Assembly: GCF_900177345.1 (NCBI RefSeq)
Contig: NZ_FWZT01000021.1
Coordinates: forward strand, 62,001 to 126,000
Direction: 5' to 3'
Length of the DNA stretch: 64,000 bases
Source: Pseudobacteriovorax antillogorgiicola
Lineage (GTDB): Bacteria > Bdellovibrionota_B > Oligoflexia > Oligoflexales > Oligoflexaceae
Below, in pieces: positions 5,303-61,717 of this stretch; the first letter of the stretch is position 1, and every line of letters begins with the position of its first letter. The notes beneath the pieces are model-generated. The model had not been told where the DNA came from, did no database searches, and worked only from the letters and a program-made list of their open reading frames with translations. Made by a program: the position numbers and the translations under genes.

Positions 5303-5434
5303 TAGCCACATGTGTATCGTATCCCCTTGAAATTGCATTTGTTATTCTGGCGCACTTCCGATTCAAAGTTTTTTTTATTTTTTTTATAGATTCATGACTC
5401 TTGATGGCACTTAGTTGTGGAGTTAGGAGGGATA

Positions 5435-7099
5435 ATGGAATCTAGAAAACTTATCGAAGAAGTTCTCGCTGGGGATCGGAAGGCTTTTGAGGCTTTGGTT
5501 CACCAATACCAAAACGTGGCCTTAGGTTTTGCTTTTTCCAAGCTTGGCGATTTCCACCTAGCAGAAGATGTAGTTCAAGAATCCTTTCTTATTGCCTATC
5601 AAAAAATGAGAAACTTGGAAGAGATCGACTCGTTTTCTTCATGGCTAAGAGGAATCGTGAATTATCGTTGTCATAGGGTTTTTCGGATGAAGCTCAGAAC
5701 TTGGGACGCCATTGATCAGAGTGGATTTGAAAAAGCTGCTGATGCCGATCAGCATCGAGACCTAGAGCAATTGCAGGAACGCAGGTTGCTAGAGCAAGCC
5801 ATTCTACGCCTTCCCGAACTCCAACGGACCGCTGTGGCTTTGTTTTACCTTGAGGATCAATCACAAAAGTTTATTTCAGACTTTTTGGATCTACCCGTGA
5901 GCAAGGTAAATAACCTTCTGGCAGATGCCAGAAAAAGACTCAATAGGAGATTATTCAACATGGCGAAAGACCACTTTAGAGAGCGTCGTTTAGAAGAAAA
6001 CTTTGCGAAAAGCATTGGGGAAGTCGTTGGGATTGAGGGACCGATCGTCGATACTCAGCTAGATAAAAACGAACAAACCTGTGTCTTTGATGTATTGGGA
6101 AGTAAGACCTCCAATCACAATAAGGGGCCAGAGATGGTTGTCGTGCAGAGGCTTGAAAAGAACCGATTTCGCTGCATGACGAATGGTTCGAGAATCTCTC
6201 AAAAAGACAAGCTTTATGCTTATGGAGACTACCATAGTGCGCTGAAGTCCTTTACAGATGATCAGGTCAAGGCAACAATCAATGCCATGAGTCCAAAGAC
6301 CCTGGAAAAGAAGCAAGTGGTCACTGGCATTAAGGTGATTGATTTGCTTTGCCCTATTATGAACTATGGCAATCTTGGTATTTTCGGTAAGGAAGGTGTA
6401 GGTCGGTTGGTTTTTCTAATGGAGCTAATCGCTAGAAAAGATAAGATAGGTTCCGATCTATCTATATTTTTCTTTGTAGATGGCTGGAATGCATTAGGTA
6501 CTCAGGACTTGCTTCAAACAGAAAAATGTCTAGCATCTGACTTCCATGATAAATTGCAAATTGCATGGATGGTTCACCCAAAGGCTGCCAGCTATGCATT
6601 TGCAGAACAAGCAGAATTTTTGGAAACGCGGCTTTATTTCAGCCCACTAAAAGCGATGGATGGGCTTTGGCCCGCCATTGATCCTATCTATTGTCACACG
6701 TTTGAGGAGCAGCGCATGCATCTCAGTACACGCCACCAAGAGGCTGCCCAGGGAGTGATCGGGGCGCTGAAATTGACAAGGCAAAAGCTTCTTGATGATA
6801 GCTATCTTGAGAAGCTGGTCCTGGGTGATGGGGAGCTTGCCAGTCAAGAAAGGCAGGTGTCAATGGCTAAGAAGCTAGATCGTTTGCCAGATGATGAGAA
6901 AGTTCTTGTTAAGCGGGGGCTGCTGCTAGAACGATATTTGACGCAACCTTTTTTCGTTGCCGAAAACCACACAGGGCGAAAAGGTGAGTTTGTTCCTTTA
7001 GAAGAGACGATACGTGATTGTCAGAGCATTCTCAATGGAGACCTAGATGATCGCAAACTAGATGAACTCATGTGGAAGGGACAATTACAGTCCAACTGA
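5435..7099 (+). CDS. ECF-type sigma factor fused to a degenerate F1-ATPase beta-subunit-like domain
   Basis: 554 residues; the ATG follows TAGGAGGG. Residues ~10-85 are sigma region 2 (AEDVVQESFLIAY, then FSSWLRGIVNYR). Residues ~120-175 are region 4 (LPELQRTAVALFY, then an HTH with VSKVNNLLADARKRL). After a basic linker, residues ~195-554 follow the F1 beta subunit from end to end: a beta-barrel start (VVGIEGPIVDTQL), TGIKVIDLLCPI, a P-loop position GKEGVGRL, GLWPAIDPIY, and a C-terminal helical domain ending ERYLTQPFFVAENHTG and EETIRDCQSILNGD. The catalytic P-loop Lys-Thr of F1 beta (GVGKT) is Arg-Leu here, and the GER catalytic-Glu segment is missing, so the domain is probably not an ATPase. 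It may sense nucleotide or bind a partner and control the sigma part. It is a single open frame, with no sign of a sequencing join. Confidence 0.88.
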   Translation: MESRKLIEEVLAGDRKAFEALVHQYQNVALGFAFSKLGDFHLAEDVVQESFLIAYQKMRNLEEIDSFSSWLRGIVNYRCHRVFRMKLRTWDAIDQSGFEKAADADQHRDLEQLQERRLLEQAILRLPELQRTAVALFYLEDQSQKFISDFLDLPVSKVNNLLADARKRLNRRLFNMAKDHFRERRLEENFAKSIGEVVGIEGPIVDTQLDKNEQTCVFDVLGSKTSNHNKGPEMVVVQRLEKNRFRCMTNGSRISQKDKLYAYGDYHSALKSFTDDQVKATINAMSPKTLEKKQVVTGIKVIDLLCPIMNYGNLGIFGKEGVGRLVFLMELIARKDKIGSDLSIFFFVDGWNALGTQDLLQTEKCLASDFHDKLQIAWMVHPKAASYAFAEQAEFLETRLYFSPLKAMDGLWPAIDPIYCHTFEEQRMHLSTRHQEAAQGVIGALKLTRQKLLDDSYLEKLVLGDGELASQERQVSMAKKLDRLPDDEKVLVKRGLLLERYLTQPFFVAENHTGRKGEFVPLEETIRDCQSILNGDLDDRKLDELMWKGQLQSN

Positions 7100-7863: not shown

Positions 7864-8172
7864 TTACTTACTTGGAGATGGAGTTGCTTTAGACGGAGCT
7901 GGCTCGACAATCCGGATATCGATCTCTTGGCAGGTACCATCACTGCCCTTTGCCTTTAATAAGTAGCGAGTTGTGCTACCACGAAGCGATTCAGGGTCTA
8001 TAGTCTGGTTGTCGAGAATGATCTTCTTGTCTTCTTTAAGAGCCTTTTTGATCGTAGCGATATCCCTGGGAGGGGCTTCAATCTTGCGTTGGACAGTCGA
8101 TCCATTGCCACCAAATGCAGACAGGCTCCAAGCGGCACAAGTAAGAAGGGAGACGCATAATTTGATCTTCAT
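7864..8172 (-). CDS. Small exported protein, partner of the adjacent regulator (module copy A)
   Basis: 102 residues. A signal peptide (MKIKLCVSLLTCAAWSLSAF, cleavage likely near residue 22) is followed by a short helical and charged region with one cysteine near residue 82 and a Pro/Ser/Lys tail. No known domain is seen. The ATG lies 2 bases after the stop of the upstream regulator gene, and its GAAGG ribosome site lies in the last codons of that gene, so the two are translationally coupled. A second regulator + small exported gene pair with the same layout is at 37267-38423. Confidence 0.75.
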   Translation of the reverse strand: MKIKLCVSLLTCAAWSLSAFGGNGSTVQRKIEAPPRDIATIKKALKEDKKIILDNQTIDPESLRGSTTRYLLKAKGSDGTCQEIDIRIVEPAPSKATPSPSK

Positions 8173-8174
8173 GA

Positions 8175-8900
8175 TTAACCTTCGATTACGTTGAGAATGA
8201 ATCCGGCAAACATCGTGTGTTCGCCAATATTTTCTTTCCGGATCTTGGAAATTTCCATTTCTGCAGAAACCATTACTTTGAAGATTTTCTTTAAACCTTC
8301 TTCAGAAACGCCTTCTGTCTGCATACCGGCCATGGCCGTTGAAGTACCAAGCCGTTGCTTGTTGAATATTTCAGTAGCGTTACGGATCTGTGCCAAAACG
8401 CTGTCTGGATCTACCGAACCAAACTCTGATTGAATGGTCTTGATCACACCCTTAACTTCTGACAAAACTCCATGGTCAATCAGGTTATGGACTTTCTTCT
8501 CGCCAAAAGACCCGAGTAACTCACGGATAGTTTCCCGAGTGGTACCCCGTTCCGTTGCGGCCAAAGAAATGATGATAAAGTTTTCTTTGTCTTGGATCAG
8601 TCGATTCAGATCGTGAGCGATGAACTCTTGGTCTTCGTTGAAGTAATCCTCCAGCCAGGAGCCGAAGTTTGAAAAGTGCTTTTTAAGGAATTGGATGCCT
8701 TCTTCGCGCGAGCAGACAAATTGGATGATGGGTAAAATATTTTCCATCGTTGGAGTGGCGTCTTGCTGATAGATTCTACGCAAGGTAGCGTAGGCTACGC
8801 CTGTTCTCATGGACAAGCCTTTGAGGCTACGATTCTTATGACCTTCCAGGTAAGACCTGATAATTATGGCGAGATCGTTCAGCATAACGTTGCTTGTCAT
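8175..8900 (-). CDS. HTH-type regulator, paralogue of the 37647-38423 protein (module copy A)
   Basis: 241 residues, ATG 8 bases after AGGAGG. Residues ~20-50 (RSLKGLSMRTGVAYATLRRIY) look like an N-terminal helix-turn-helix. The centre holds IISLAATERGTTRETIRELLG, which matches FNIAATSHGTNRTDIRVLLG in the paralogue: a shared AATxxGTxRxxIRxLLG signature. The C-terminal part is helical. It resembles phage-like or XRE-type regulators but fits no family I can name with certainty. It is followed by a translationally coupled exported-protein gene, so it may control, or respond to, that partner. Confidence 0.7.
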   Translation of the reverse strand: MTSNVMLNDLAIIIRSYLEGHKNRSLKGLSMRTGVAYATLRRIYQQDATPTMENILPIIQFVCSREEGIQFLKKHFSNFGSWLEDYFNEDQEFIAHDLNRLIQDKENFIIISLAATERGTTRETIRELLGSFGEKKVHNLIDHGVLSEVKGVIKTIQSEFGSVDPDSVLAQIRNATEIFNKQRLGTSTAMAGMQTEGVSEEGLKKIFKVMVSAEMEISKIRKENIGEHTMFAGFILNVIEG

Positions 8901-9021
8901 TTAGGGAACCTCCTATCCATGCCATAATATACATATTGGCCAGGTTTTTCAATATAAAGTTATAATATGGGATAAAAATATTTAAAAGACGAATAAAAAC
9001 AGCTGGTAAAGGGGTTAAATC

Positions 9022-9057
9022 TTTCCGATCGCCCCACGTTTAGGAGGGAATCGGAAA
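9022..9057. repeat. Inverted repeat upstream of the pseudokinase/SpoIIE gene
   Basis: Perfect 8-base arms TTTCCGAT / ATCGGAAA are separated by 20 bases containing an AGGAGGG stretch. It lies ~100 bases before the 9159 start in the region between the divergent regulator and the large signalling gene. It could be an operator for a dimeric regulator. Confidence 0.35.
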
Positions 9058-9158: not shown

Positions 9159-12100
9159 ATGGATTTTAAATTCAAAGACTATCGAATCAAAAAGGTTCGT
9201 CGGGAGACCGAGCTCTTCAAGGAGTATCTGGCAACCCGTGGAGGCGACCCCAAACCTTACATATTAAAAGTCCTCGATCTTACCAAGGATGGAAGGGATT
9301 TTCTCCAGTATGAGTTTCGCTTTATAAAACGCTACGGTCTCTCTAGCTTTCTGATCCCGATAGACATCGATACTGAAGAAGGGCGTACAGTAGCGGTGTA
9401 CGAGATGCCGGATTGCATGAGCCTCCATAATCTGGCTAAAAGTAATATCTCGATCAAGCAAAAACTTGAAGTTGCAGTCCGGCTCTTTGATGCTCTTAGC
9501 AAGTTGAACTCCCATCACATAACACTGAGAATCGTTAATTCGCACAACATTTTGATTTCAGGTAAAGATGGGCGAATCTACTTCTCTGATCTGATGGCCG
9601 CCATTGAAGAAAAGAGTAAAGATCCTATCGCTTGGGGGGTTCGAATCCCAAAAGAACATTATCCCTACATGTCTCCAGAGCAGACAGGTCGAATCAAAAA
9701 GTCGTCTGACTATCGAACAGATTTTTACTCCGTTGGCATATGCCTTTTCGAGTTGTTCACGGGTAGTGTACCGTTCATCTGTAGCAACATACTAGAGTAC
9801 TTCAACTCTCATGTGGCAAAAGCTATGCCGCTAGCCTACGAGCTGAGCCCATCGGTACCCCATCAGGTTTCGATGATTATAGACAAGCTTGGCCAGAAGA
9901 ATCCTGAAAGTCGCTATGTGAGTGCCTGGGGAGCAAAAGCTGATCTACAAAAGTGTTGGTACTACTTTGATCGTGGGGAAGAAATTCCTCGTTTTCCATT
10001 AGCTGAAAGAGATGTATCTGACAAACTACAGTTTCCTGATCGTATCTATGGCCGGGATTTGGATATCGTACTCTTGAATCGTGAGTTAAATCGATTCAAG
10101 GACAACGAGAGCAACCTTGTGGTGCTTGAAGGTGCAGCGGGTGTGGGGCGTACAAGCCTCATTGAAGAATTTAGGCGCAAGATGGTGCGAGACGATTCGC
10201 TTTTTATGTACGGCTCCTTCACCAGGGAAAGTCAGAGGCGACCCTATGAAGCGTTGATCGAGGCATTTACGACTTTGATCAAGCAAATGTTAATGCAGTC
10301 TGAAAGTCAGCTCAACTATTGGAAAACCAAGATTCGTGATGCAGTGGGTGAAAATGGTTACTACATCTCTCGGCTTATTCCTGAACTGGAGCTGATTCTT
10401 GGCAAGCAAAAGCAGGTGAAGTCCTTAGGACCAAAAGAAGAAAAAAGTCGTTTTGAGCTAACCTTTCGCAATTTTGTTGGCAGTCTGAGCGAAAGCAAGG
10501 AGCCAGTGATCTTATTTCTGGATGACTTGCAATGGATGGATCATGCTTCTAATGATCTCTTAAACTTTGTTTTTAACCAAAACGAAGAGCTGAGAATCTT
10601 CGTTATCCTAGGCTATCGCTCCGATGCTGAAGATCGGCGCTGGTTGCTCAATGAAATTGAAATTCAGTTCGAGCGCATGGGGTATCGTATCACGCGGCAG
10701 TCATTGCAACCACTCCAGCGCAAGGATGTTGGCGATTGGTTGCAGGATACCTTTAAGTTCGATGAAGAGGAACTTGCTGAGTTCTCAGATTTGATCATTC
10801 AGAAAACGAGAGGCTATCCTTACTTTATTCGTCAGTTTATCGAACAATTAGTGGATGGTGATGCGATATACTTCAACGATCACGACTGTCGATGGTACTG
10901 GGATTTTCATAAGGCTAGCAACCAAAGGATCACCGATAATACTGCAGATCTTTTAGTCGAAAATTTTCGTAGCCTCCCACCAACATCAATCAATGTATTG
11001 TGCTATGCAGCTTGCCTCGGTGAAAGCTTTGCTCTGGATGAACTCCTGATCGTAATGGAAGAGGAAGAAACTGTTGTTAAGCAAGCATTACTTTCTATTT
11101 GTGAAGAAGGTATCTTGTTGCCCCTTATGGAGCGCAACCTTCAGTTCCTCAAAGTCTCTGAGAACTTTATCACCAATGCCAGATTTCAATTCACCCATGA
11201 TCGCGTTCGCCTCGCCGCAGAAATGCTCATGAGCCCTAAGAAACGGGCAAAAGTTCATCTCCAGATTGGTCAAGCCCAACTTTCATATCTTACCGAACAG
11301 CAGGTTGAGGATCGAATTTATGAGCTAGTGAACCACTTCAATATGTCTTTGACGGATCAATCTGCAGCGGATTTTGCGGTGGCGAGATTGAATCTAAAAG
11401 CCGCGAAACGGGCTCATCAGTCCTCTGCTTTTAAGGCGTCGATCCAGTATCTAAAAAATGCCATTACCTTGATTGGCGAAGATTCATGGCAGCATAACTA
11501 CGATACTTGTATTGAAATTTACAAAGAGATGGCGATTGTAAGCTTCCTAGGGAAAGACAACCTTGCCATGAGGGATGCGATCGAAGAAGTAAGGGTTCAC
11601 GCCAAGACTCTTGAAGATCTTATCGAAGTTCAGGAAGTTGAAATTCAAAGCACCATGGCTGAAGACAAGATTGCTGCAATTCGCATTGCCACTGACTATA
11701 TGAACTCACTTGGTACAAAGTTGCCTCATAATCCGACTAGAGTTCATGTCGCCTGGCACCTTTTGAAAGCTCTGGTTCAGATCCGGGTGCGACCCTACAT
11801 GGAGGTCCTTCGTAGTCATGAGGTGGTTGAGGACAAGAAACTTGAGGCTATCATGAGGATTGGCTGTTCAGTGGGCTCTGCTGCTTACCTGGCGCAGCCT
11901 AACTTTTCTCCGATTTTGATCTGCTTCGGTGTGGTGATGGGGCTAAAGAATGGTCATGTCTCGTCCATGCCATTCGCCTATGCTGGCTTTGCAACTATAT
12001 TGGCCGGAGTTTTCCGAAATTATGATGAAGCTCATCAGCTTGGTGAATTCAGCCGAGAGCTATCTCTTAGGTTTAATCTGAAGGATCAGATCTGCCGAGT

Positions 12101-14375
12101 TGAGCATATGGTTTGGTCGTTTATCAACCCTTGGAAGGTTCCTGTTCGAGACTGTTTGCAAGGCGTGATCAAGGCTTTCCGCACTGGAATGGACGGTGGC
12201 GAGTTTGAGTTCGCAATTCATGCCATTAATATTTACGGTTTTTACGCCTTCTTCTCTGGCAAGAACTTAAATGTGTTAAGTGATGAGCTACGTGACTATC
12301 GCCGATTGATCGCAGAGCTAAATTATGAGCACCTTCTCGCTCACACTGAGATGTATCGTCAGGGTGTCAATAACCTGATGGAAGGTTCTGAAAACTCTGT
12401 GACGCTCTGCGGTCAGTTTTATAATGAGAAAAAACATGTGGCATTTATCGAGTCGGCCCATGACTTTGCTTTTTACAAGGCAGTTCTTCAATTGATGTTG
12501 GCATATAGCTTTAAGCAAGATCTTAAGGCGATCGAATTCGTCCGTCAGTGCAATGCCAAGGCATATGCAGCCGTGGGCTCCTTTGCAACACCCACCTACC
12601 TATTCTACGAGGCGCTCCTATATATCAGACTGATTCGGGAGAAGCGAACCCGTTGGGCCTACTTCAAACGCAGGCGGGTCAAGGCAATTATGAAAAAAAT
12701 GGAGCTTTGGAGTCACCATTGTCCGCAAAATCACTACCATCGCTATTTGATTCTCAAGGGCGAGCTTCATCACCTTCAAGGCGAGTTCGAACTGGCTATC
12801 AAGTACCTCAATCAAGCATCAGATTTCGCAGAGAAAAATGGCTTTGTACACGAAGTTGCTTTATCTTATGAGCTCGTTGCGCAGTTGGCTCTGAATTCAG
12901 GACTGCTTCATATAGCTCAAGACTACATGGGGCGGAGCTTGCAAGCCTATCGAGAATGGGGAGCGACCAAAAAGGTGGAGCGTCTGCTCAAAGAGCATGC
13001 CCACTGGTTGAAGTTGGAAAATCACCAGCAATCTCATGGTCGCCGCAATGCAGAAAGTCTTGATTTTGAAACCTTCCGTGAGGTGATTTCTGGTCTTGCC
13101 CAAGAGACGCGGCACGACAAACTCATCGATCAAGTCATGCGCTCGTCGCTGATGTTTGCAGGAGGGGATAAGGGGTTCATCATCCTGCGTGAAGCTAGAT
13201 CCCAGATCTTTAAGATTGCGCGGAGTTTTGATGGTAACACCATGGCAGTTGTTGATGCGAACTATCAGAAAAGCCAGGACCTGTGTCTTGGGGTAGTGAA
13301 CTACGTTTTGAGAACAGCGCGTATTATCGTTGTTGATGATGCTTTGATTCCCAATCGAATTATTCCTGGTCTGGAACGGGAGAGTTATATAGCCGATAAT
13401 CTTGTAAGGTCTTTGGCTTGCTTGCCAATTATTGTCGGTGGACGAACGGGAAAGGAGCTGATTGGGGTTATATACCTTGAGAACAGCCTGACATCTCATG
13501 TTTTCTCACAGCAGAAGATCCAGATGTTAGAGTTAATTGGCCAGACAGCAGCAGGCCGAATCGAATTATCAAAGAAATCGGATATTTTGGAAGACTCTCT
13601 CCAGCAGGCCTACCAGGTGCAGCAGGCGATGCTTCCCAAAACTGGCGGCATCAGTTCATTCTCTGTCAGCGAGTACTACCAAGCTGCTGAGCACACTGGT
13701 GGCGACTGGTATGGCTACTACGAAGACAAGGCTGCAAAGCGACTATATTTCTTTATCGGTGACGTGACGGGGCATGGGGTATCTTCCTCTTTGATTACTG
13801 GAACAGCAGCTGGTGCGGTCTACTCATCTTTAGACACACTGAAGCGATCCACAAACAATCGTTTGACTATGGATGAAGAGATCGAGATCTTAGCCATGGC
13901 TGTTAACAAGGCGGTTTTTGATACTGGTGCGAAGGTCGATCGCATGATGACGATGCTATTCATGATCTTTGAAACTGATACTGGTAATGGGGTCTATATC
14001 AATGCTGGTCACCCGGGCGGGTGTATCATTGGCTACAAGAAGAACCGGGTCTTTTTATCATCAGGTGGCCCCCTTGGTTATTTACCTGATCCTAAATACA
14101 GAATTAGAGAGTTCAGTCTTGAAAGGCAAGAATCTATCTTCTTCTATACCGATGGTCTAACCGAAAATCGTGGGCCCAATGGCGAGGAGTTTAAAATACG
14201 GCGTCTTATGAAGCTTCTTGAGCCCAGCAAGACACCCTATGAGTTGAAACAAATCATCCTGAAACAAGGTCGAGCGATCTGGCAAAATCACCCAGCCGAG
14301 GACGATTGTGCCTTTGTCATCCTGCGATGGGAAGGGACTGAAGACGATCTGAAGAAAGAATTCCTACCTGCTTAG
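9159..14375 (+). CDS. Pseudokinase - AAA ATPase-like - TPR-like - GAF - SpoIIE/PP2C phosphatase signalling protein
   Basis: 1738 residues. Residues ~1-270 have a Ser/Thr-kinase fold with the MSPEQTGR and YRTDFYSVGICLFELFTG segments of the cyanobacterial/deltaproteobacterial multidomain kinases. However, the catalytic HxD position reads LRI (near 124) and DFG reads SDL, so it is a pseudokinase. Residues ~295-600 form an AAA/NACHT-like module with P-loop GAAGVGRTS (Arg for Lys) and Walker B ILFLDDLQWMD. Residues ~640-1280 are a long helical, TPR-like region. GAF is at ~1300-1460. A SpoIIE-type phosphatase is at ~1490-1730, with metal-binding GGDWYG and GDVTGHG and a final DDCAFVIL. The phosphatase motifs are intact, so the likely output is dephosphorylation of an anti-sigma-antagonist-type partner, gated by the upstream domains. 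The ribosome site is weak. Confidence 0.88.
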   Translation: MDFKFKDYRIKKVRRETELFKEYLATRGGDPKPYILKVLDLTKDGRDFLQYEFRFIKRYGLSSFLIPIDIDTEEGRTVAVYEMPDCMSLHNLAKSNISIKQKLEVAVRLFDALSKLNSHHITLRIVNSHNILISGKDGRIYFSDLMAAIEEKSKDPIAWGVRIPKEHYPYMSPEQTGRIKKSSDYRTDFYSVGICLFELFTGSVPFICSNILEYFNSHVAKAMPLAYELSPSVPHQVSMIIDKLGQKNPESRYVSAWGAKADLQKCWYYFDRGEEIPRFPLAERDVSDKLQFPDRIYGRDLDIVLLNRELNRFKDNESNLVVLEGAAGVGRTSLIEEFRRKMVRDDSLFMYGSFTRESQRRPYEALIEAFTTLIKQMLMQSESQLNYWKTKIRDAVGENGYYISRLIPELELILGKQKQVKSLGPKEEKSRFELTFRNFVGSLSESKEPVILFLDDLQWMDHASNDLLNFVFNQNEELRIFVILGYRSDAEDRRWLLNEIEIQFERMGYRITRQSLQPLQRKDVGDWLQDTFKFDEEELAEFSDLIIQKTRGYPYFIRQFIEQLVDGDAIYFNDHDCRWYWDFHKASNQRITDNTADLLVENFRSLPPTSINVLCYAACLGESFALDELLIVMEEEETVVKQALLSICEEGILLPLMERNLQFLKVSENFITNARFQFTHDRVRLAAEMLMSPKKRAKVHLQIGQAQLSYLTEQQVEDRIYELVNHFNMSLTDQSAADFAVARLNLKAAKRAHQSSAFKASIQYLKNAITLIGEDSWQHNYDTCIEIYKEMAIVSFLGKDNLAMRDAIEEVRVHAKTLEDLIEVQEVEIQSTMAEDKIAAIRIATDYMNSLGTKLPHNPTRVHVAWHLLKALVQIRVRPYMEVLRSHEVVEDKKLEAIMRIGCSVGSAAYLAQPNFSPILICFGVVMGLKNGHVSSMPFAYAGFATILAGVFRNYDEAHQLGEFSRELSLRFNLKDQICRVEHMVWSFINPWKVPVRDCLQGVIKAFRTGMDGGEFEFAIHAINIYGFYAFFSGKNLNVLSDELRDYRRLIAELNYEHLLAHTEMYRQGVNNLMEGSENSVTLCGQFYNEKKHVAFIESAHDFAFYKAVLQLMLAYSFKQDLKAIEFVRQCNAKAYAAVGSFATPTYLFYEALLYIRLIREKRTRWAYFKRRRVKAIMKKMELWSHHCPQNHYHRYLILKGELHHLQGEFELAIKYLNQASDFAEKNGFVHEVALSYELVAQLALNSGLLHIAQDYMGRSLQAYREWGATKKVERLLKEHAHWLKLENHQQSHGRRNAESLDFETFREVISGLAQETRHDKLIDQVMRSSLMFAGGDKGFIILREARSQIFKIARSFDGNTMAVVDANYQKSQDLCLGVVNYVLRTARIIVVDDALIPNRIIPGLERESYIADNLVRSLACLPIIVGGRTGKELIGVIYLENSLTSHVFSQQKIQMLELIGQTAAGRIELSKKSDILEDSLQQAYQVQQAMLPKTGGISSFSVSEYYQAAEHTGGDWYGYYEDKAAKRLYFFIGDVTGHGVSSSLITGTAAGAVYSSLDTLKRSTNNRLTMDEEIEILAMAVNKAVFDTGAKVDRMMTMLFMIFETDTGNGVYINAGHPGGCIIGYKKNRVFLSSGGPLGYLPDPKYRIREFSLERQESIFFYTDGLTENRGPNGEEFKIRRLMKLLEPSKTPYELKQIILKQGRAIWQNHPAEDDCAFVILRWEGTEDDLKKEFLPA

Positions 14376-31378: not shown

Positions 31379-32188
31379 TTACTGACATTCACAAAGATCT
31401 TTTGGGCAAAAACTCGGAACCTGGTTGCAATTTTCATTGCACCATTCAGCGTCAGCCCCTGAAAATGGCTTGGCATTACAGAGAAGCTTAGAAGTTGTCT
31501 GGCTTAACTGGCTAGCTTCATCGTCGCAATCATCTCCAGTTGGAAAACTGGGATTGCCGTTATCTGTATCCGGCGAATTTGAGTCGCCTGGTGTTCCATC
31601 ACCACCGCCATTCGAGCCATTAAAATCCACATCTATGACTTGGTAGAAGGTTGCAGCAGTATCACCCACATCCCAAAGGGCTAGGATAACATGATAGCCG
31701 CTTCTCTCAGGTAGCTGACAGTCATGAGATATATCCGCAGGAGGTTTTGCCATTGCACCGTCGACTACACAGAACGGCTCAAGATCAAACGCCTGTCGTG
31801 ATAAAGGTTCAGATGGATTCCAGTCAGGCTTTGTTAAAAAGTACCTCCAATCCTTGGTCACATGAGGTGCTGTGAAATGCCACGAGAACGTATTGGTTCC
31901 CGATTTGATGGCAACCTTATTCCATCGACCAGGGGACTGTTCGTTAAGCGGAGACCAAGAAGCGCTCGCAGCAGCCGCAATTTGTCCATCGGCTGCACCG
32001 GCTTCGGGAAAACCATCTGGTCCTTCCACACTTTGCGGTTCGTATTGCACAGCACCACAATTTTGATTACTTCCTTCTTTGCACAAAAGTGAGCGTGACT
32101 TAGGCTCACTCATGTAACCATGAGCTAAGGCAAGAATTGGGTAAGATAAGAATATTAGAATGCAGAGTGTATTAAATAGTGTCTTCAT
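31379..32188 (-). CDS. AA10 lytic polysaccharide monooxygenase with a C-terminal Cys-rich module
   Basis: 269 residues from the ATG that gives a clean signal peptide (1-22, ending ALA) and exposes His23 as the mature N-terminus, the first ligand of the copper histidine brace. The second His is in FSWHFTAPH. The [15 protein letters not shown] and FYQVIDVDF segments are typical of AA10. After a Gly/Asp/Ser/Pro linker (~195-225), a short module ends in [18 protein letters not shown], probably a disulfide-knotted binding domain. AA10 enzymes cleave chitin or cellulose oxidatively. It is secreted, and the next gene upstream is a chitin-binding-like lipoprotein on the same strand. Confidence 0.93.
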
Positions 32189-32241
32189 TTGCGTCCGTCT
32201 CAAATTAATTAATCATCAGAACATGTTTAGAGTGCGTGAAC

Positions 32242-37266: not shown

Positions 37267-37650
37267 TTATGGGTCGATCGGCTGAAGAGCCAAAGTACAG
37301 GTTCCAACTTCGATGAAGATGAGCATGGAATTACGATCAAACCATATGGCATCGACATTGCGATTTAATGCATTGCTGATTTGATCAATAAATTTCGATC
37401 CGTGGTTCATTAGAACATAGTAATCCGCAAGAGGGACGCTTAGTACCGTTCGGTTTTCTTCGAAACTCTCTGCGATTTGTAGCAGCGTTTCTTCGTCCAG
37501 TCTTGGCTCTGAATCTCGGTTGTCATTTTTGGGTGGGTTCTCTCCTAGTATCAAGGAAATCATCCGAGCTGACATAACAGTGTCGCTACCGTTGCCAAAA
37601 CCTGAACTGGCAATCAGCAAGCTCATAGCGATTGTACGTATGGTTTTCAA
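37267..37650 (-). CDS. Small exported protein, partner of the adjacent regulator (module copy B)
   Basis: 127 residues from a TTG (37650) that overlaps the TGA of the regulator gene (TTGA), 7 bases after AGGAG. Signal peptide MKTIRTIAMSLLIASSGFG (cleavage near residue 20), then an acidic helical part (~35-70) and a beta-rich end. It shows no clear sequence match to the copy A partner (7864-8172), but has the same place, size class, export signal and translational coupling. Confidence 0.72.
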   Translation of the reverse strand: MKTIRTIAMSLLIASSGFGNGSDTVMSARMISLILGENPPKNDNRDSEPRLDEETLLQIAESFEENRTVLSVPLADYYVLMNHGSKFIDQISNALNRNVDAIWFDRNSMLIFIEVGTCTLALQPIDP

Positions 37651-38423
37651 TGTAGGTCTCCTTGTGACTGACGCCACTGGTTTTGATCGTAGATACTATA
37701 GATGAGGTTGCAGAAAAACGCCACATTACCCTTTGCATCATCGTCATTCTTTAGGCTTGATAATTCTCTGGCAAAGTCTTGGATCAGTTTCTTCACTCGG
37801 GAAAGCTGGTCCTGACTTACTGAAGCTGTCATATTTACAAGGGATGCAGCATCAGTTCCAATCAAACTCTTGTCAAAATGGCTGATAGACATTTTTACCT
37901 GAGATAAGATGTCGTCGACATCGGTTAGGGCCCAAGAGTCGCTTGAGTAATGGATCGAGCCGCGGTCGTCTTCCACAAGAAAACCTTCATCGATCATTTC
38001 TTGCAGTGCTTGGATGCCTACATCACCCAATAGAACGCGAATGTCCGTGCGATTGGTCCCGTGACTCGTCGCTGCAATGTTGAAGATTCGATTGTGTGGC
38101 TCTTTATTGAGGTAGCGCCTAAGCATCTCGTGATGAGGCTCGTTTCGAACCTCGTGGCTATAAGCTGATTCCATCAGCTCGCCGATTTTTGGGAAATAGC
38201 TCTTGAAAAATGCCACCCGCTCCTGAGTCGGCATGATGATATCTGTGATGGAAAATATGGTCGACTCATTGGGTAGTCGTTCGCCTTGAGCGATATACCG
38301 GATGGTTGAGTAAGCCTTATTTGTTCGATGGGCTAGCATCGATAGGCTACGGGACTTCTTCCCATTCAACCAAGTTTCGATAGCGCCCTTAAGGTCGAGC
38401 AGCATGGCTTCCTTATTGTCCAA
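37647..38423 (-). CDS. HTH-type regulator, paralogue of the 8175-8900 protein (module copy B)
   Basis: 258 residues from a TTG 6-7 bases after GGAGAGGAG; an ATG six codons later is the alternative. The N-terminal HTH (RSLSMLAHRTNKAYSTIRYIA) and the signature FNIAATSHGTNRTDIRVLLG align with copy A. The C-terminal helix pairs also correspond. It is followed by a coupled exported-protein gene. Likely role: DNA-binding sensor or regulator working with that partner; the family is not one I can name. Confidence 0.72.
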   Translation of the reverse strand: MDNKEAMLLDLKGAIETWLNGKKSRSLSMLAHRTNKAYSTIRYIAQGERLPNESTIFSITDIIMPTQERVAFFKSYFPKIGELMESAYSHEVRNEPHHEMLRRYLNKEPHNRIFNIAATSHGTNRTDIRVLLGDVGIQALQEMIDEGFLVEDDRGSIHYSSDSWALTDVDDILSQVKMSISHFDKSLIGTDAASLVNMTASVSQDQLSRVKKLIQDFARELSSLKNDDDAKGNVAFFCNLIYSIYDQNQWRQSQGDLH

Positions 38424-38668
38424 TATGGTCTCCTCTCCTTTGGGGATCATACGGCTGTGATTGCGACTTAAACGGGGTATATAGCGGATTCTGCTGGTAA
38501 ATAGCAAAGGGAAATCCAAGCGATGCACCCACGGCGGGCTGCAGTCGCTTGAACTCCCCTGATATTATTGAGAAATTAATAAATATGGCATTTCCGTGTG
38601 TGGTTAGCCTGGCCTTTTCACAAGCAGCGACATTCTCTCCGACTTTTTGCTAGTAAGTCTGTTAATCG

Positions 38669-53092: not shown

Positions 53093-54019
53093 TTACGATG
53101 CTCCTCGTTCAATATCCGATGGCGGCTGGCTACTATCTTGGGATGCGATATCTCGAATCTCCGCCAGGAGTTTGACGGCTTCTTGGTTTGACTTACGTAA
53201 ATTTTCTATGGCTTCGATCATCTTATATTCACCATGACTTAATTTATTGCCATGAATTCGATACCACATAAATTCAATAGCACGTTCGAAATTTTTAGAC
53301 ACTTCATTGCGAACAGAAGCAAGGGGAAACAAAGACGTTATTAGAGTCATCGTCACACTGAATACGATACCTGCGATGGATGTATTCATAGAATAGGCAA
53401 CACCACCAACGAAAGCATTCAGAACGGGAGCTGCTTCATCAAGTTTGGTGATATCAATTTGGGCGATCATAGGCAGTGCCGAGGTGATACCCACAAAAGT
53501 ACCGAAGATACCTCCGACAATGAACAGATTTGGTAGTAAGTCCAAACCACGATTTAGTGAGTTTACTGGTAGAATCTTTAGGATATTTCGCCAGTTAGGG
53601 TCTTGGTTGAGAACGCGATCGGCAAGTTCCATGAAGTTTGGTGGGTGAGGGCTTTTTAGGGCGTCCACCTGTTGTTTGATGGCTAATATAACGCTCCGCT
53701 TACTATCTGTAAATTCCGATAGCCGTTGCTTCTGTTTCTCCTCAGTTTTACGAAACCGTAAAGATCGATCCGGCAAGTGTTCCTCGATTTTATAGAGTAA
53801 GTTCTCTAGCCAGATCTCGACATCATCGACACTTTCATGCTTAGCTTCCTCTTCTTCAAGCTGCTTAATCACCGCATGAGAGAAACTATTGAAGTAGGCT
53901 TTGTTCACTTTATTGTTGTTATGAGCAATATACCGGAGGATAAGAGCAATCACGCAGGTGATTGCCATAATTTGTATCAGATAAGCGGCGGCAATATTAA
54001 ATATCTCAATGACCGACAT
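53093..54019 (-). CDS. MotA/TolQ/ExbB-like proton-channel protein, partner of the giant coiled-coil protein
   Basis: 308 residues. N-terminal membrane helix (~8-30), a charged cytoplasmic helical region (~35-165), then two membrane helices with family sequence: LFIVGGIFGTFVGITSAL (~175-195) and GGVAYSMNTSIAGIVFSVTM (~220-245). The three-helix layout is TolQ/ExbB-like. A charged C-terminal tail follows. The start overlaps the end of the giant gene by 14 bases. The family forms a pentamer around a dimer of the B-type subunit and couples ion flow to mechanical work. Confidence 0.9.
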   Translation of the reverse strand: MSVIEIFNIAAAYLIQIMAITCVIALILRYIAHNNNKVNKAYFNSFSHAVIKQLEEEEAKHESVDDVEIWLENLLYKIEEHLPDRSLRFRKTEEKQKQRLSEFTDSKRSVILAIKQQVDALKSPHPPNFMELADRVLNQDPNWRNILKILPVNSLNRGLDLLPNLFIVGGIFGTFVGITSALPMIAQIDITKLDEAAPVLNAFVGGVAYSMNTSIAGIVFSVTMTLITSLFPLASVRNEVSKNFERAIEFMWYRIHGNKLSHGEYKMIEAIENLRKSNQEAVKLLAEIRDIASQDSSQPPSDIERGAS

Positions 54020-57000
54020 TCACAGGCCCCTTGTTTTGGAGTTTGTCCGCAATTATATCGAAGTGACGTTCTGCATCTTTCTGGTCTTTTAGAACGAAAT
54101 TGATCTCTACCCTACGTGATTTCTTGCAGTGGTATGGTCCGCACATGCACTCCTCGTATCGAAACTTGTTCCACTTATCTTTAAGACAGCGGTCATTTTC
54201 TTGTAATTTAACGGGGTCCATGAAACCTTTTCCAGAAACACTAGTCAGCGCTCGCATCTTGTTTTTATACCTATAATTACCCACTTCATCACCAAAAGCG
54301 AATTCTACAATCTGCTGGGCACGATTGAGAGAAAGCTCCAGGTTGTATTGGTAAGCGATGCCGCGAGTGGTGAAAGGATCTACATACTTCCTCTTGTACT
54401 TAGGGCTTGCAAATCCAGCAATGGAAATGCCATCGATTCGATTTGCGATATCGGGTGCACCTAAGAGGCTCTTCGCATAAATAGGTATCATACGACTTAG
54501 TTTCGCCTTCGCGGTTTCGCTGAGTTGATAGCTATCGTTTTTAAAATAGAAGGATTCATCCATGCGGAGAGTGATGTTACCTGTTTCAGGGTTGATATCA
54601 ACTTCGATGCCGGAAGCTCTGAGGTTGTCTGCTATTCGGGAAGCGATAGTTTTGCGCTCGTTGGCGACTCGTTGCATAGCTGATCGAGCACCTTCAAGCG
54701 TTTGCGCGACGTCTTTGATCTGATCATCCTTCGTGCGTAGTTTTGCAGCCATTTTCATGCCGACATCTTTCTGCTCTTCTATCTTCTCGGCCAGACGATC
54801 GATCTCTTTGTCTTTGGTTTTGATTGCTTTTGTTGTATTTGCCAAGCGCTCGATCAATTGACGGTTTTGGTCGCCGCCCTTGTCAAATGCTTGCGCAATC
54901 CGATTATTTCGATCGTTCAACTTTCCGATTTGCCGGATGGCTTTGGCTAAGTTATCTTTAGTTGTCCGTATCTTCTCAAGTAGGTCTGCAACTTGCTTCT
55001 TGGCGTTGATTAATTCTGGACTTGGCTGGCTGACAAGCTGTTGTGGAGCACCTGTTCCTGGCCCTTGGCCTTCACCTTGACCAGCACCAAGACCTTGTCC
55101 CTGGCCAGCACCAAGACCTTGTCCCTGACCAGCACCAAGACCTTGTCCTTGCCCTTGACCCATGCCAGGCCCCTGCCCTGGGCCTTTGCCTGGAGGAGGT
55201 GTTGTCATGGTGAGAGCTTTGCGAAGGCCTTGGTTGTCATCTTTCAGGTTTTTAACTTGGTCTTTAAGGGCTGCAACTTGATCTTGGAAATTAGCGATCA
55301 AAGATCCTGAGCTGCCAAAGCGATTTTCTTGAGGTACAGTAACTTCCGTTGGCTTCTTGTCGAGAGCTGCGACTAACTGTTGCCGTTGATCTTGCAAGGT
55401 GTCTATTTTATTGTTGGCATTGGCTAGTTGGTTCTTCAGGTCATCCATCTCGTCAAGTGCCTTCAAGAGCTTACCCTTTTGACTAGCCGCATCCCCCATG
55501 GCCTTACCCAGATCGCCTTTTAAGGTTTCATTACTATCTTTTCGTTGAGCTAAGGTCTGGTTTAGCTGCTGATTCTGAGCTTTCATTTTATCCAAGTCAT
55601 CCTTGAGGCGTTTCATTTCATTGCCCATGCGATCAATCTCTTTTTGGGCTTGCCCCAGGTTATCTTGGAGGGTTTTGTTAGTGCTGCCACCCTTAGCCAG
55701 TGCTTGTCCTAGGTCATTCTTCGTGTTTTGAAGCTTTGCCAGATCACCCTTTAGCTTGCCTATTTCATTTCTCAGCTGGTCATTTTCACCTTGGGCCTTG
55801 CCTAAAGCTTGCTTTAGACCTTGATTCTCGGCATTACCTTTTGCTAAAGCCTGACCTAGCTTCTCGTTATTTCCCTTAGTCTTGCCTAGCTCTCCTTGGA
55901 GTTTACCTAATTCACCTTTCAGCTGAGCAACCTGCCCTTGGGCTTTGCCAAGAGCGCTCTTGAGCCCCTTATTTTCCGCATTGCCATCAGCTAGGGCTTG
56001 TCCGAGTTTGCCAAGATCTCCTTTGGCTTTGCCTAGTTCACCCTGGAGTTTGCCTAATTCACCTTTCAGCTGTCCAACCTGCCCTTGGGCTTTGCCAAGA
56101 GCGTCTTTGAGACCTTTATTTTCCGCATTGCCGTCAGCAAGTGCTTGGCCTAATTTACCAAGTTCCCCTTTGGCTTTGCCTAGTTCTCCTTGGAGTTTAC
56201 CTAGCTCTCCCTTTAGTTGACCAAGCTGGCCTTTGGCCTTGCCGAGCTCCCCTTGTGCTTTGCCAAGCTCCCCTTTAGCTTTGCCAAGAGCACCTTTGAG
56301 GCCTTCATTTTCTGCTTGACCATCAGCAAGTGCCTTGCCAAGGCGACCGTTCTCCCCTTGTAGCTTACCAACTTGGCCCTTAAGTTCTCCTACTTGCCCT
56401 TGTAACTTGCCGACCTGCCCAGCGAGGCCTTGATTCTTAGAGTTACCCTGGCCCAATGCCTCGGCAAGTCCTTGGTTTTCACCGCGAAGCTTGTCATTCT
56501 CTCCTTGAAGTTTTCCGACTTGGCCTTTGAGTTTGCCAACTTCTCCCGCAAGCTTGTCGTTTTCGCTTTTTCCCTTACCTAAGGCTTTGCCAAGAGCATC
56601 ATTTTTACCTTTTAGCTCTGCCAATCCACCTTTTAACTTGCCGATTTCTCCCTTTAGCTTACCAATTTCGCCATTGAGTCGGTCATTTTCGGTTTTGCCT
56701 TTTCCTAGAGCATTGCCAAGTTCTTTGTTTTTACCTTCCAGCTCAGCAATCCCACCTTGTAAATCGCCAATTTTCCCCTTGAGTTTTCCTAACTCGCCAT
56801 TGAGTTTTTGATTCTCTGTCTTGCCCTTACCCAGAGCATCACCAAGTTCTTTATTCTTTCCTTCTAATTCAGCGATGCCTCCCTGGAGTTCGCCAATCTT
56901 GCCTTTGAGTTTTCCAATTTCACCATTGAGCTTTTGATTTTCGGTTTTACCCTTGCCAACAGCGTTGCCTAGTTCTTTGTTCTTGCCTTCTAACTCAGCA

Positions 57001-60000
57001 ATGCCCCCTTGGAGTTCTCCGATCTTACCCTTGAGCTTGCCGATTTCACCATTAAGCTTTTGGTTCTCGGTTTTGCCTTTACCCAAAGCGTTACCTAGCT
57101 CCGTGTTCTTGCCTTCCAGCTCAGCCATTCCGCCTTCCAGCTCACCAACCTTACCTTTGAGCTTGCCAATCTCTCCCATCAACTTCTTATTTTCAGTTTG
57201 GCCTTTGCCCAAGGCTTTGCCTAATTCAGTGTTCTTGCCTTGAAGCTCAGCATTAGCTCCTTCCAACTCGCCTACCTTGCCCTTGAGTTTTCCAACATCA
57301 CCGGCAAGCTTTTGATTCTCTGCCTTGCCTTTGGCAATATCACCTTGAGCTTTACCAAGGGCCTTTTTGAGGCTTTCATTCTCAGTTTTAGCCTGGCCAT
57401 TTTCGGCTTGTAGGTTCTTATTATCAGCTTCAGACTTGGCCAGTTTGCCAGTAAGGTCTTTAACCTGACCTGCCAAGGACTTAGCCTCCGCTTTGCTCTT
57501 ACCGAGAGCGGTTTTAAGAGCTTTGTTCTCACCTTCTTGTGCTTTCATCTTGGCATCTTTTGCCTTGCTTTCTCCTTGGGCCTTAGCTAGCGCTGTTTTC
57601 AAAGATTTATTCTCGGATTGTGAATCTTTGGCCTCACCTTGAGCTTTGGCAAGAGCTTTGCTCAAGCTATCATTTTGCTTTGAAAGCTCGGAATTCTTGG
57701 TCTCTTGAGACTTGGCTTCACCCTGCGCTTTGGCGAGGGCTGTTTTCAAAGACTTGTTTTCAGACTTAGCGTTTTTAGCGTCGTTCTGTGACTTGGCTAG
57801 TGCCTTGCTCAAGGACTCATTCGTTTTGCTAAGCTCAGTATTCTTGGCCTCGTTTGCCTTGGCCTCACCCTGACTCTTGGCAAGTTTGGTCGTTAAATCC
57901 TTGATTTCTTGCTTGGACTGTGTTTGGGCCTGCTGCGATTTCGCTAGAGCTTTTGTGAGTTGCTGATTCTGTTGTTGAGAATCTTGAATGGTCTTTTCCT
58001 GCTGTTTCACCTTAGCTTGAGACTGGGCTACCTGTTGAGTCAAATCCTTTACTTGTTGCTCCGCTTGAGTTTTCTGCTGGTTTGTTTGGGCCAAAGCCTT
58101 AGTGAGCTGCTTATTCTTCTGCTCTTCTTGCTTGGCTTGAGCTTGGACTTGAGCGACCTTTTTAGTGAGCTCTTTGTTCTGCTCTTGCGCCTCGTTTTTT
58201 TCTTGTGTGACCTTGGCAATAGCTTTTGTGAGCTGCTGGTTTTTCTGCTGTTCTTGAGCGACCTTTTGCTGTTCTTGCTGAACCTTCTGCTCTTGCTGCT
58301 TGATCTGGGCTTGAGTCTGGGCCACTTTTTTAGTTAGTTCTTGATTTTGCTTTTGTGCTTCAGTTTTTTCTTGTGTGACCTTTGCGATGGCTTTTGTGAG
58401 CTGCTGGTTTTTCTGTTGTTCCTGAGCGACCCTTTGTTGCTCTTGCTGTACCTTCTGCTCTTGCTGCTTGATCTGGGCTTGAGTCTGGGCCACTTTTTTA
58501 GTTAGTTCTTGGTTTTGTTTTTTTGCCTCAGTGTTTTCTTGTGTGACCTTGGCAATAGCTTTTGTGAGCTGCTGGTTTTTCTGCTGTTCTTGAGCGACCT
58601 TTTGCTGTTCTTGCTGTACCTTCTGCTCTTGTTGTTTAACTTGTGCCTGGGTCTGCGCGATTTTTTTAGTTAGTTCTTGGTTTTGTTTTTTTGCCTCAGT
58701 GTTTTCTTGTGTGACCTTGGCAATAGCTTTTGTGAGCTGCTGGTTTTTCTGCTGTTCTTGAGCGACCTTTTGCTGTTCTTGCTGTACCTTCTGCTCTTGT
58801 TGTTTAACTTGTGCCTGGGTCTGCGCGATTTTTTTAGTTAGTTCTTGGTTTTGTTTTTTTGCCTCAGTGTTTTCTTGTGTGACCTTGGCAATAGCTTTTG
58901 TGAGCTGCTGGTTTTTCTGCTGTTCTTGAGCGACCTTTTGCTGTTCTTGCTGAACCTTCTGTTCTTGTTGTTTAACTTGTGCCTGGGTCTGCGCGATTTT
59001 TTTAGTTAGTTCTTGGTTTTGTTTTTTTGCCTCAGTGTTTTCCTGTGTGACCTTGGCAATAGCTTTTGTGAGCTGCTGGTTTTTCTGCTGTTCTTGGGCG
59101 ACCCTTTGCTGTTCTTGCTGAACCTTCTGCTCTTGTTGTTTAACTTGGGCTTGAGTCTGTGCCACCCTTTTAGTTAGTTCTTGGTTTTGTTTTTTTGCCT
59201 CAGTGTTTTCTTGTGTGACCTTGGCAATAGCTTTTGTGATCTGCTGGTTTTTCTGTTGTTCCTGAGCGACCCTTTGTTGCTCTTGCTGTACCTTCTGCTC
59301 TTGTTGTTTAACTTGGGCTTGAGTCTGTGCCACCCTTTTAGTTAGTTCTTGGTTTTGTTTTTTTGCCTCAGTGTTTTCTTGTGTGACCTTTGCGATAGCT
59401 TTTGAAAGCTGCTGGTTTTTCTGCTGTTCTTGAGCGACCTTTTGCTGTTCTTGCTGAACTTTTTGCTCCTGCTGCTTGATCTGAGCTTGAGTTTTAGCCA
59501 CCTGCTTGGTAAGGTCTTTAACCTGCTGCTGAACTTGAGTTTTTTCTTGATTGACCTTTGCGATAGCTTGGGTTAGTTGTTGAGTCTTTTTTTGCTCTTG
59601 ATCAAGCTTTCTTTTTTCTTGCTCGACAGCTTGCTCCTGCTGTTTGACCTGAGCCTGGCTTTGGGCCACTTTTTTTGTGAGGTTTTGAACCTGCTTCTGA
59701 GTTTTGTCCTTCTCCTGAATAGCTTTTGCTACCGCCTGGTTGAGTTGCTCGTTTTTCTTCTTCTGTTCTTTGACCGCCACTTCCAAAGCTTTTTTCTGAG
59801 CCTCGACAGTTTTGGTTTCTTCTTGCTGTTTTGCTAGCTGCGCTTGGGTTTGCGCTTGCTTTGTCTGAGTCTTTTTGAGCTGCTCCTGAACTTTCTTAGA
59901 ATCCTCAGAAAGGTTTTGGACTTTCAGATCAAGGTTTTCAATTTTCTTTTGAGACTCTAGCTGTTCACTTGCCTTTTTGGCTATCTGCTGCTCAAGCTTT

Positions 60001-61499: not shown

Positions 61500-61717
61500 A
61501 GCTTCCTCCAGTTTGCCACTAGGCAAAGGTTACCCATTGGGCGAATTCGCTTTAGGGGCCAATCGGCTAAGGCTCTAAAAAGTTAAAATAAAATAACAAG
61601 GCTTGAAAAAAGTAAGAAATTCGGAAAGATCCCCTATGGCTAGGGACTTAGTTTTCTTGAGGAAATGTGTAGAGAATCGAAAAAATTGCTTTTGGGATAA
61701 TTTCGGAGTGGTGTTAG

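What the first reader, a model, noticed from the sequence alone, without database searches (positions are those of the whole stretch)
7864..8900. Regulator/exported-protein module, copy A
Seen: an HTH-type regulator with the AATxxGTxRxxIRxLLG signature is followed by a small exported protein 2 bases later; a paralogous pair with the same coupling is 29 kb away. Two independent pairs make chance unlikely. The partners differ in sequence, so the exported protein may be the diversified part. Inference: an envelope signalling or toxin/immunity-like module.
Basis: partly seen in the sequence, partly recalled or inferred. Interest (0 to 1): 0.75.

Follow-up and report, generated by a model that had tools for sequence, protein, structure and literature searches.

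The report
Multi-copy regulator–exported-protein gene pairs
A bacterium of the Oligoflexia group carries about seventeen copies of a small two-gene unit, a DNA-binding regulator followed at once by a fast-evolving exported protein, and relatives carry them too; the regulators are an unmodelled branch of a family of unknown function, so the unit looks like an undescribed way of controlling envelope proteins.

Summary
Copy A (7864-8900, minus strand) is a 241-aa regulator followed 2 nt later by a 102-aa protein with a signal peptide; copy B, 29 kb away, is the same with a 4-nt overlap. The genome holds 17 such regulators, 16 with a small exported protein directly 3'. In related genomes it is 54 of 62 (49 if doubtful ORFs are dropped), against 5 of 101 control genes. 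The regulator (XRE HTH + winged helix + C-terminal helix; pLDDT 91) is a divergent full-length relative of TIGR02147/DUF4423 (profile-profile 97.6%, reversed controls about 1%) that misses that family's cut-offs. Classical TIGR02147 genes here also often precede exported lipoproteins (10 of 22). Both kinds of partner share a mature N-terminal glycine motif that marks the linkage. Partners evolve faster than regulators, under purifying selection. Copy A's partner could not be shown homologous to the others beyond signal peptide and motif. Most likely: translationally coupled operons in which the regulator controls its own exported partner. Toxin/immunity has no support. New variant of a known kind; mechanism inferred, not shown.

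The parts
8175..8900 (-). Regulator A, 241 aa: XRE/Cro-C1 HTH (res. 1-85), winged helix (about 94-168), C-terminal helix (200-223)
   Evidence: AlphaFold2 mean pLDDT 91.3; structural look-up
7864..8172 (-). Exported partner A, 102 aa: signal peptide, mature N-terminus GGNGSTV, then a variable domain; ATG 2 nt after the regulator's stop
   Evidence: no Pfam, NCBIfam or PADLOC family
8909..8914 (-). Ribosome-binding-site-like AGGAGG before regulator A
   Evidence: read by eye
8924..8952 (-). Promoter-like site TTGAAA-17-TATTAT before regulator A (10 of 12 consensus positions; such sites are also expected by chance here)
37647..38450 (-). Regulator B, paralogue of A (start codon uncertain)
37267..37650 (-). 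Exported partner B, TTG start overlapping the regulator's stop by 4 nt; mature N-terminus GNGSDTV

Best explanation
Each copy is a self-contained two-gene operon. The first gene is a cytoplasmic DNA-binding regulator of a divergent TIGR02147/DUF4423-type branch; the second, probably made by translational coupling, is a small Sec-exported protein with a glycine-rich mature N-terminus and a fast-evolving domain. The regulator most likely controls its own operon, and so the dose of its own exported partner, in response to a cytoplasmic cue; the many parallel copies give the cell a repertoire of separately switched envelope or extracellular proteins. SHOWN here: the pairing, its tightness, conservation, paralogy, the mature N-terminal motif, selection on both genes. 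INFERRED: DNA binding (fold), translational coupling (overlap), autoregulation, export (signal peptide by sequence rule only). NOT KNOWN: the cue, the partner's target, where it ends up.
For: Pairing 16 of 17 in this genome and 54 of 62 in relatives vs 9 of 101 and 5 of 101 controls. Stop-to-start distance mostly -4 to +13 nt. Reciprocal test: a profile of the small partners finds 13 places at E<1e-4 in the genome, all directly 3' of a regulator; two were not in the training set and revealed two further modules (checked). HTH plus winged-helix fold. Both genes under purifying selection (regulator dN/dS 0.01-0.09, partner 0.07-0.24 where dS was not saturated), partner dN higher in 11 of 11 pairs. 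Tandem duplicates of the whole pair in two relatives (L081; L054 with L082). Small-partner domain of one group predicted as a single beta-alpha-beta4 unit behind a low-confidence Gly-rich stretch.
Against: No operator was found for the whole family: upstream inverted repeats are not above shuffles for most copies. Several regulators have no partner (L024; 8 of 62 in relatives), so a regulator can persist without one. One own-genome copy lacks its HTH but keeps its partner (L163), which a pure 'regulator controls partner' model does not need. Co-phylogeny of regulator and partner is clear over all 60 pairs but weak within the single genome (rho 0.198, 241 of 5000), and a first version on global alignments was not significant. 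No expression or binding data exist here.
Confidence: 0.5

Rival explanations
1. Export-sensing or back-signalling pair: the unexported partner precursor (or its cleaved N-terminal part) binds the regulator, so that the regulator reads the state of export or the partner's own abundance. The conserved mature N-terminal motif would be the regulator-binding element.
For: The motif (GG or GxG within 15 residues of the predicted cleavage site) is in 40 of 56 partners vs 17 of 172 other exported proteins, and several of the 17 are themselves partners of other regulators. In the own genome, of 7 signal-peptide lipoproteins carrying CG-x3-GN, 6 lie directly after a TIGR02147/DUF4423 regulator. The motif is shared while the rest of the partners is mostly unrelated. 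An HTH-less regulator keeps its partner.
Against: The N-terminal part tracks regulator similarity no better than the rest of the protein (Mantel 0.50 vs 0.58). Common descent of the modules explains a shared N-terminus without any contact. No complex was modelled.
Confidence: 0.25
2. The Gly-rich N-terminus is a sorting, anchoring or secretion tag for a class of envelope proteins, and the regulators merely happen to control that class.
For: Position right behind the signal-peptidase site or the lipidated Cys is where sorting signals sit (general knowledge). Predicted with low confidence, probably flexible.
Against: A general tag should occur on exported proteins without such regulators; only 1 of 7 own-genome CG-x3-GN lipoproteins lacks one.
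Confidence: 0.15
3. Pheromone-type quorum sensing (RRNPP-like): the exported protein is the precursor of a peptide that is re-imported and binds the regulator.
For: XRE regulator followed by a small exported product, many paralogues.
Against: Modelled regulator has a winged helix and two further helices, not a TPR array. Partners are 81-136 aa in this genome, with a confidently folded mature domain in the group modelled, not 40-60 aa precursors (size recalled).
Confidence: 0.05
4. Toxin-antitoxin or toxin/immunity module.
For: HTH regulator next to a small protein, multi-copy; a few family members match antitoxin HTH models weakly.
Against: Partner carries a signal peptide; no toxin, antitoxin or defence family found for the partners tested; no third immunity gene seen; the comparable Streptomyces XRE-DUF397 pairs, once proposed as TA systems, did not behave as such (PMC10364602, abstract read).
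Confidence: 0.05

Closest known systems
TIGR02147 (Fsuc_second) / Pfam DUF4423 family
   Same: Same domain order and full-length profile similarity (97.6%; C-terminal part alone 96.1%); same genomes; about half of the classical genes sampled also precede an exported protein, mostly with a glycine motif at its mature N-terminus.
   Different: Falls far below the curated cut-offs (copy B 12.2 of 50 bits and 13.7 of 30); only 1 of 70 members matches TIGR02147 at E<=0.01. Partners are mostly small non-lipidated proteins instead of 166-453-aa lipoproteins and larger exported proteins.
Streptomyces XRE-DUF397 (WhiJ-type) pairs
   Same: Many paralogous pairs per genome of an XRE regulator followed by a small protein of unknown function; proposed as TA, found to be regulatory (PMC10364602, abstract).
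   Different: The small protein there is not, to my recollection, exported; no sequence relation to DUF397 was found in the Pfam scans of partners.
RRNPP regulator/peptide systems (PlcR-PapR, Rgg-SHP, AimR-AimP; recalled)
   Same: HTH regulator followed by a small exported product.
   Different: No TPR array in the model; partner is a folded, larger, diverse protein.

Membership tests
TIGR02147 / DUF4423 | Score over the curated cut-off of TIGR02147.1 (50 bits) or PF14394 (30 bits) | tested here: not met
   Copy B 12.2 and 13.7 bits, copy A no match; 1 of 70 members matches TIGR02147 at E<=0.01
TIGR02147 / DUF4423 | Full-length homology: HTH followed by the DUF4423 region | tested here: met
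   hhalign 97.6% over 224 columns; C-terminal part alone 96.1% over 128; reversed controls 0.7% and 1.1%
TIGR02147 / DUF4423 | Exported or lipoprotein gene directly 3' (association seen here, not part of the family's definition) | tested here: met
   Own genome 10 of 22 classical genes sampled of 31 present; relatives 6 of 13 analysable
RRNPP quorum-sensing regulators | C-terminal TPR repeat array | tested here: not met
   Model shows winged helix plus helices 165-177 and 200-223 after the HTH
RRNPP quorum-sensing regulators | Short exported peptide precursor as partner | tested here: not met
   Own-genome partners 81-136 aa; folded domain in the group modelled
Type II toxin-antitoxin | Partner belongs to a toxin family or is toxic | tested here: inconclusive
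   No family match; toxicity not testable here
XRE-DUF397 pairs | Partner has a DUF397 domain | tested here: not met
   No DUF397 match for the partners scanned in Pfam

The most novel reading that the evidence does not exclude
TIGR02147-like regulators, in both the classical and this divergent branch, are the cytoplasmic half of an undescribed regulator/exported-protein signalling system in which a short glycine motif at the mature N-terminus of the partner is read by, or specifically required for, its own regulator, while the rest of the partner diversifies freely.
Probability: 0.25. Interest if true: 0.85.

Novelty: new variant of a known kind. Interest (0 to 1): 0.6.

Why it matters
TIGR02147/DUF4423 is a many-copy regulator family with no assigned function. 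Finding that it and a divergent, unmodelled branch are both wired to an adjacent exported protein carrying a common N-terminal mark gives a concrete handle on what these regulators do, and makes the question testable gene by gene. It may also explain part of the envelope repertoire of Oligoflexia. In the library searched, TIGR02147 is in no paper and DUF4423 in one table row of one proteomics paper.

Tried and rejected
Chance pairing: rejected by the controls. Toxin/immunity: no support. RRNPP: fold and partner size do not fit. Family-wide operator: no common palindrome; perfect repeats in some upstream regions are mostly no better than shuffles. Co-phylogeny on normalised global alignments was not significant (258 of 2000; own genome 877 of 5000); on local scores it is over all 60 pairs but only weakly within one genome. 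Copy A's partner in the small-partner family: leave-one-out profile puts it at rank 35 among 630 shuffled decoys, so homology is not shown; the 12 other own-genome partners of that group rank 1. Known fold for the small partner: Foldseek none at E<=0.001, best VIA Z 2.5; this does not show a new fold. Known fold for the whole regulator: no Foldseek match at E<=0.001; the rows found cover the HTH, or the winged helix with the long helix (4g6q_A Z 10.3, rmsd 5.6, 141 aligned). Named relatives: copy A as query found nothing; a subgroup alignment found 16 loci, several named Pseudobacteriovorax, Oligoflexus or Oligoflexaceae. Literature on regulator-lipoprotein pairs in Bdellovibrio/Oligoflexia and on the Fibrobacter paralogue family: nothing relevant.

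Rows dropped before counts: of 72 regulator ORFs in relatives' loci, 2 duplicates and 8 too short, truncated or too near a contig end were dropped to give 62. The loci cover nearly all, not all, of the relatives' matches listed (the G015:C117 and G022:C65 matches were not fetched). The 54 include 5 doubtful ORFs (L048, L050, L093, L094, L114); without them 49. In the pair comparisons six rows were dropped, those five and one duplicate, leaving 60. Own-genome L027's partner fails the automatic signal-peptide rule but is clear by eye and by profile. Of 20 classical DUF4423 loci, 5 short ones could not be analysed. The background exported set was not purged of all partners of other regulators, which makes the comparison conservative.

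Full report
What is there. On the minus strand at 8175-8900 lies a 241-aa regulator and, 2 nt after its stop, at 7864-8172, a 102-aa protein beginning with a signal peptide. The paralogous pair lies at 37267-38450, with a 4-nt TTGA overlap.

How many. The own genome (7.28 Mb, 68 contigs; window = C21:62001-126000) holds 15 regulators found by one protein search, not counting one marginal 96-aa HTH-only ORF, of which 14 have a small ORF with a signal-peptide-like start at -4 to +13 nt (for copy B and L017 the likely internal start is meant, the ORFs being open to -31); the exception is L024, with no recognisable remnant. A profile search adds an HTH-less one in C52 and a divergent one in C35, both with partner: 16 of 17 in all. 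Of 38 genomes searched as relatives, G000 included, 22 have the regulator; over the 58 genomes held for the phylum 27 do, also with G000, nearly all in the same order, two in the same class. By a fixed rule 54 of 62 relatives' regulators are followed by a signal-peptide ORF (49 without doubtful ones), against 5 of 101 other genes there; own genome 13 of 15 against 9 of 101. One miss, L056, keeps a 23-aa remnant, 91% identical, of the partner.

Reciprocal evidence. A profile of 22 small partners, searched against the own genome, gave 13 places at E<1e-4, all directly 3' of a regulator; 11 were in the training set, the other two revealed the C35 and C52 modules. The profile does not cover the partners of copy B, L017 and L018, which form other groups.

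What the regulator is. AlphaFold2 gives a confident model (mean pLDDT 91.3): XRE-type HTH, winged helix, C-terminal helix. Pfam and NCBIfam name nothing beyond weak hits, mostly to HTH models. Profile-profile comparison with 33 classical TIGR02147/DUF4423 proteins from the same group of genomes aligns the whole length (97.6%, 224 columns); the part behind the HTH alone matches (96.1%, 128 columns), reversed controls 0.7 and 1.1%. So it is a divergent branch of that superfamily, outside its curated limits.

The wider pattern. The own genome also holds 31 classical DUF4423 genes. Of 22 examined, 10 are followed at -8 to +23 nt by a larger exported protein, nine of them lipoprotein-like with C-G-x-x-x-G-N or a near variant at the mature N-terminus (the count of nine is by eye). 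In relatives 6 of 13 analysable ones have such a neighbour. A whole-genome search for the DNA of a lipobox-like C-G-x3-G-N gave 18 matches (12 for the reversed control pattern); 7 sit at the N-terminus of a signal-peptide lipoprotein, and 6 of those 7 directly follow a TIGR02147-type regulator.

The partner. Mature N-termini of the small partners are glycine-rich (22% vs 7% Gly; GG or GxG in 40 of 56 vs 17 of 172 background exported proteins). Beyond that they differ: 12 own-genome partners other than copy A's form one diverged family by leave-one-out profiles, copy A's does not score. A member of that family is modelled as beta-alpha-beta4 (mean pLDDT 80.7; roughly 88-96 over residues 31-95) behind a low-confidence Gly-rich stretch; no clear structural match. 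The partners scanned have no NCBIfam or Pfam family above cut-off except one classical lipoprotein with DUF4382.

Evolution. In 11 pairs of close homologues dN of the partner exceeds that of the regulator every time; dN/dS, where not saturated, is 0.01-0.09 (regulator) and 0.07-0.24 (partner): both are real, constrained genes, the partner less so. Regulator and partner similarity correlate over 60 pairs (0 of 2000 permutations), but that includes taxon structure; within the own genome the link is weak (241 of 5000), and a first version was not significant. Nearest regulator equals nearest partner in 23 of 60 against 1 expected. So pairs travel together but are sometimes reshuffled.

Mechanism. 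Most likely an autoregulated, translationally coupled operon whose product is a variable exported protein. The linkage of a short N-terminal mark with one kind of regulator leaves open a closer functional tie (the novel case), but the mark does not follow the regulator better than the rest of the partner does, and shared descent suffices to explain it.

Novelty. In the library searched there is no paper with TIGR02147, one with DUF4423 (a table row; Bd3700 among proteins raised during growth in prey, passage read), and nothing relevant in three further searches. The library lacks most subscription journals, so this is not proof that the coupling is unpublished. The closest functional analogue in print that I found is the Streptomyces XRE-DUF397 pairs (PMC10364602, abstract and outline only).

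Noticed in passing
window 5417-7099 (+): Predicted ECF-type sigma factor (regions 2 and 4) fused to a domain that resembles the ATP synthase alpha/beta nucleotide-binding domain (E=3e-4, 20.9 bits, below Pfam's cut-off of 29.5); the P-loop looks altered by eye. An unusual fusion, next to copy A.
   Followed up: partly
window 9159-14375 (+): 1738-aa protein with protein kinase, AAA_16, TPR-like, GAF and SpoIIE phosphatase domains, divergent from copy A's operon.
   Followed up: partly
window 54006-61526 (-): 2506-aa repetitive Lys/Gln/Glu-rich, coiled-coil-like protein; it coincides with the extreme AT skew there.
   Followed up: no
window 31379-32203 (-): Secreted lytic polysaccharide mono-oxygenase (LPMO_10, E=5e-47).
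   Followed up: no
L163 2435-3177 (own genome C52): Regulator without its HTH (157 aa) that still has a 4-nt-overlapping partner.
   Followed up: partly
upstream of L017, L043, L053 regulators (about -110 to -164): Inverted repeat GTGAGCA-N16/17-TGCTCAC (GCGAGCA...TGCTCGC in L053) with changes matched on both arms, inside an upstream stretch conserved across genera; possible operator of the copy-B-like subgroup.
   Followed up: partly
window 9022-9057: Perfect inverted repeat TTTCCGAT-N20-ATCGGAAA upstream of regulator A (0 of 20 shuffles as good).
   Followed up: no
L219 (own genome C8): Orphan lipoprotein CGTYIGNPEEGD..., similar at its N-terminus to a regulator-linked one (L214) but without a regulator in front.
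   Followed up: partly
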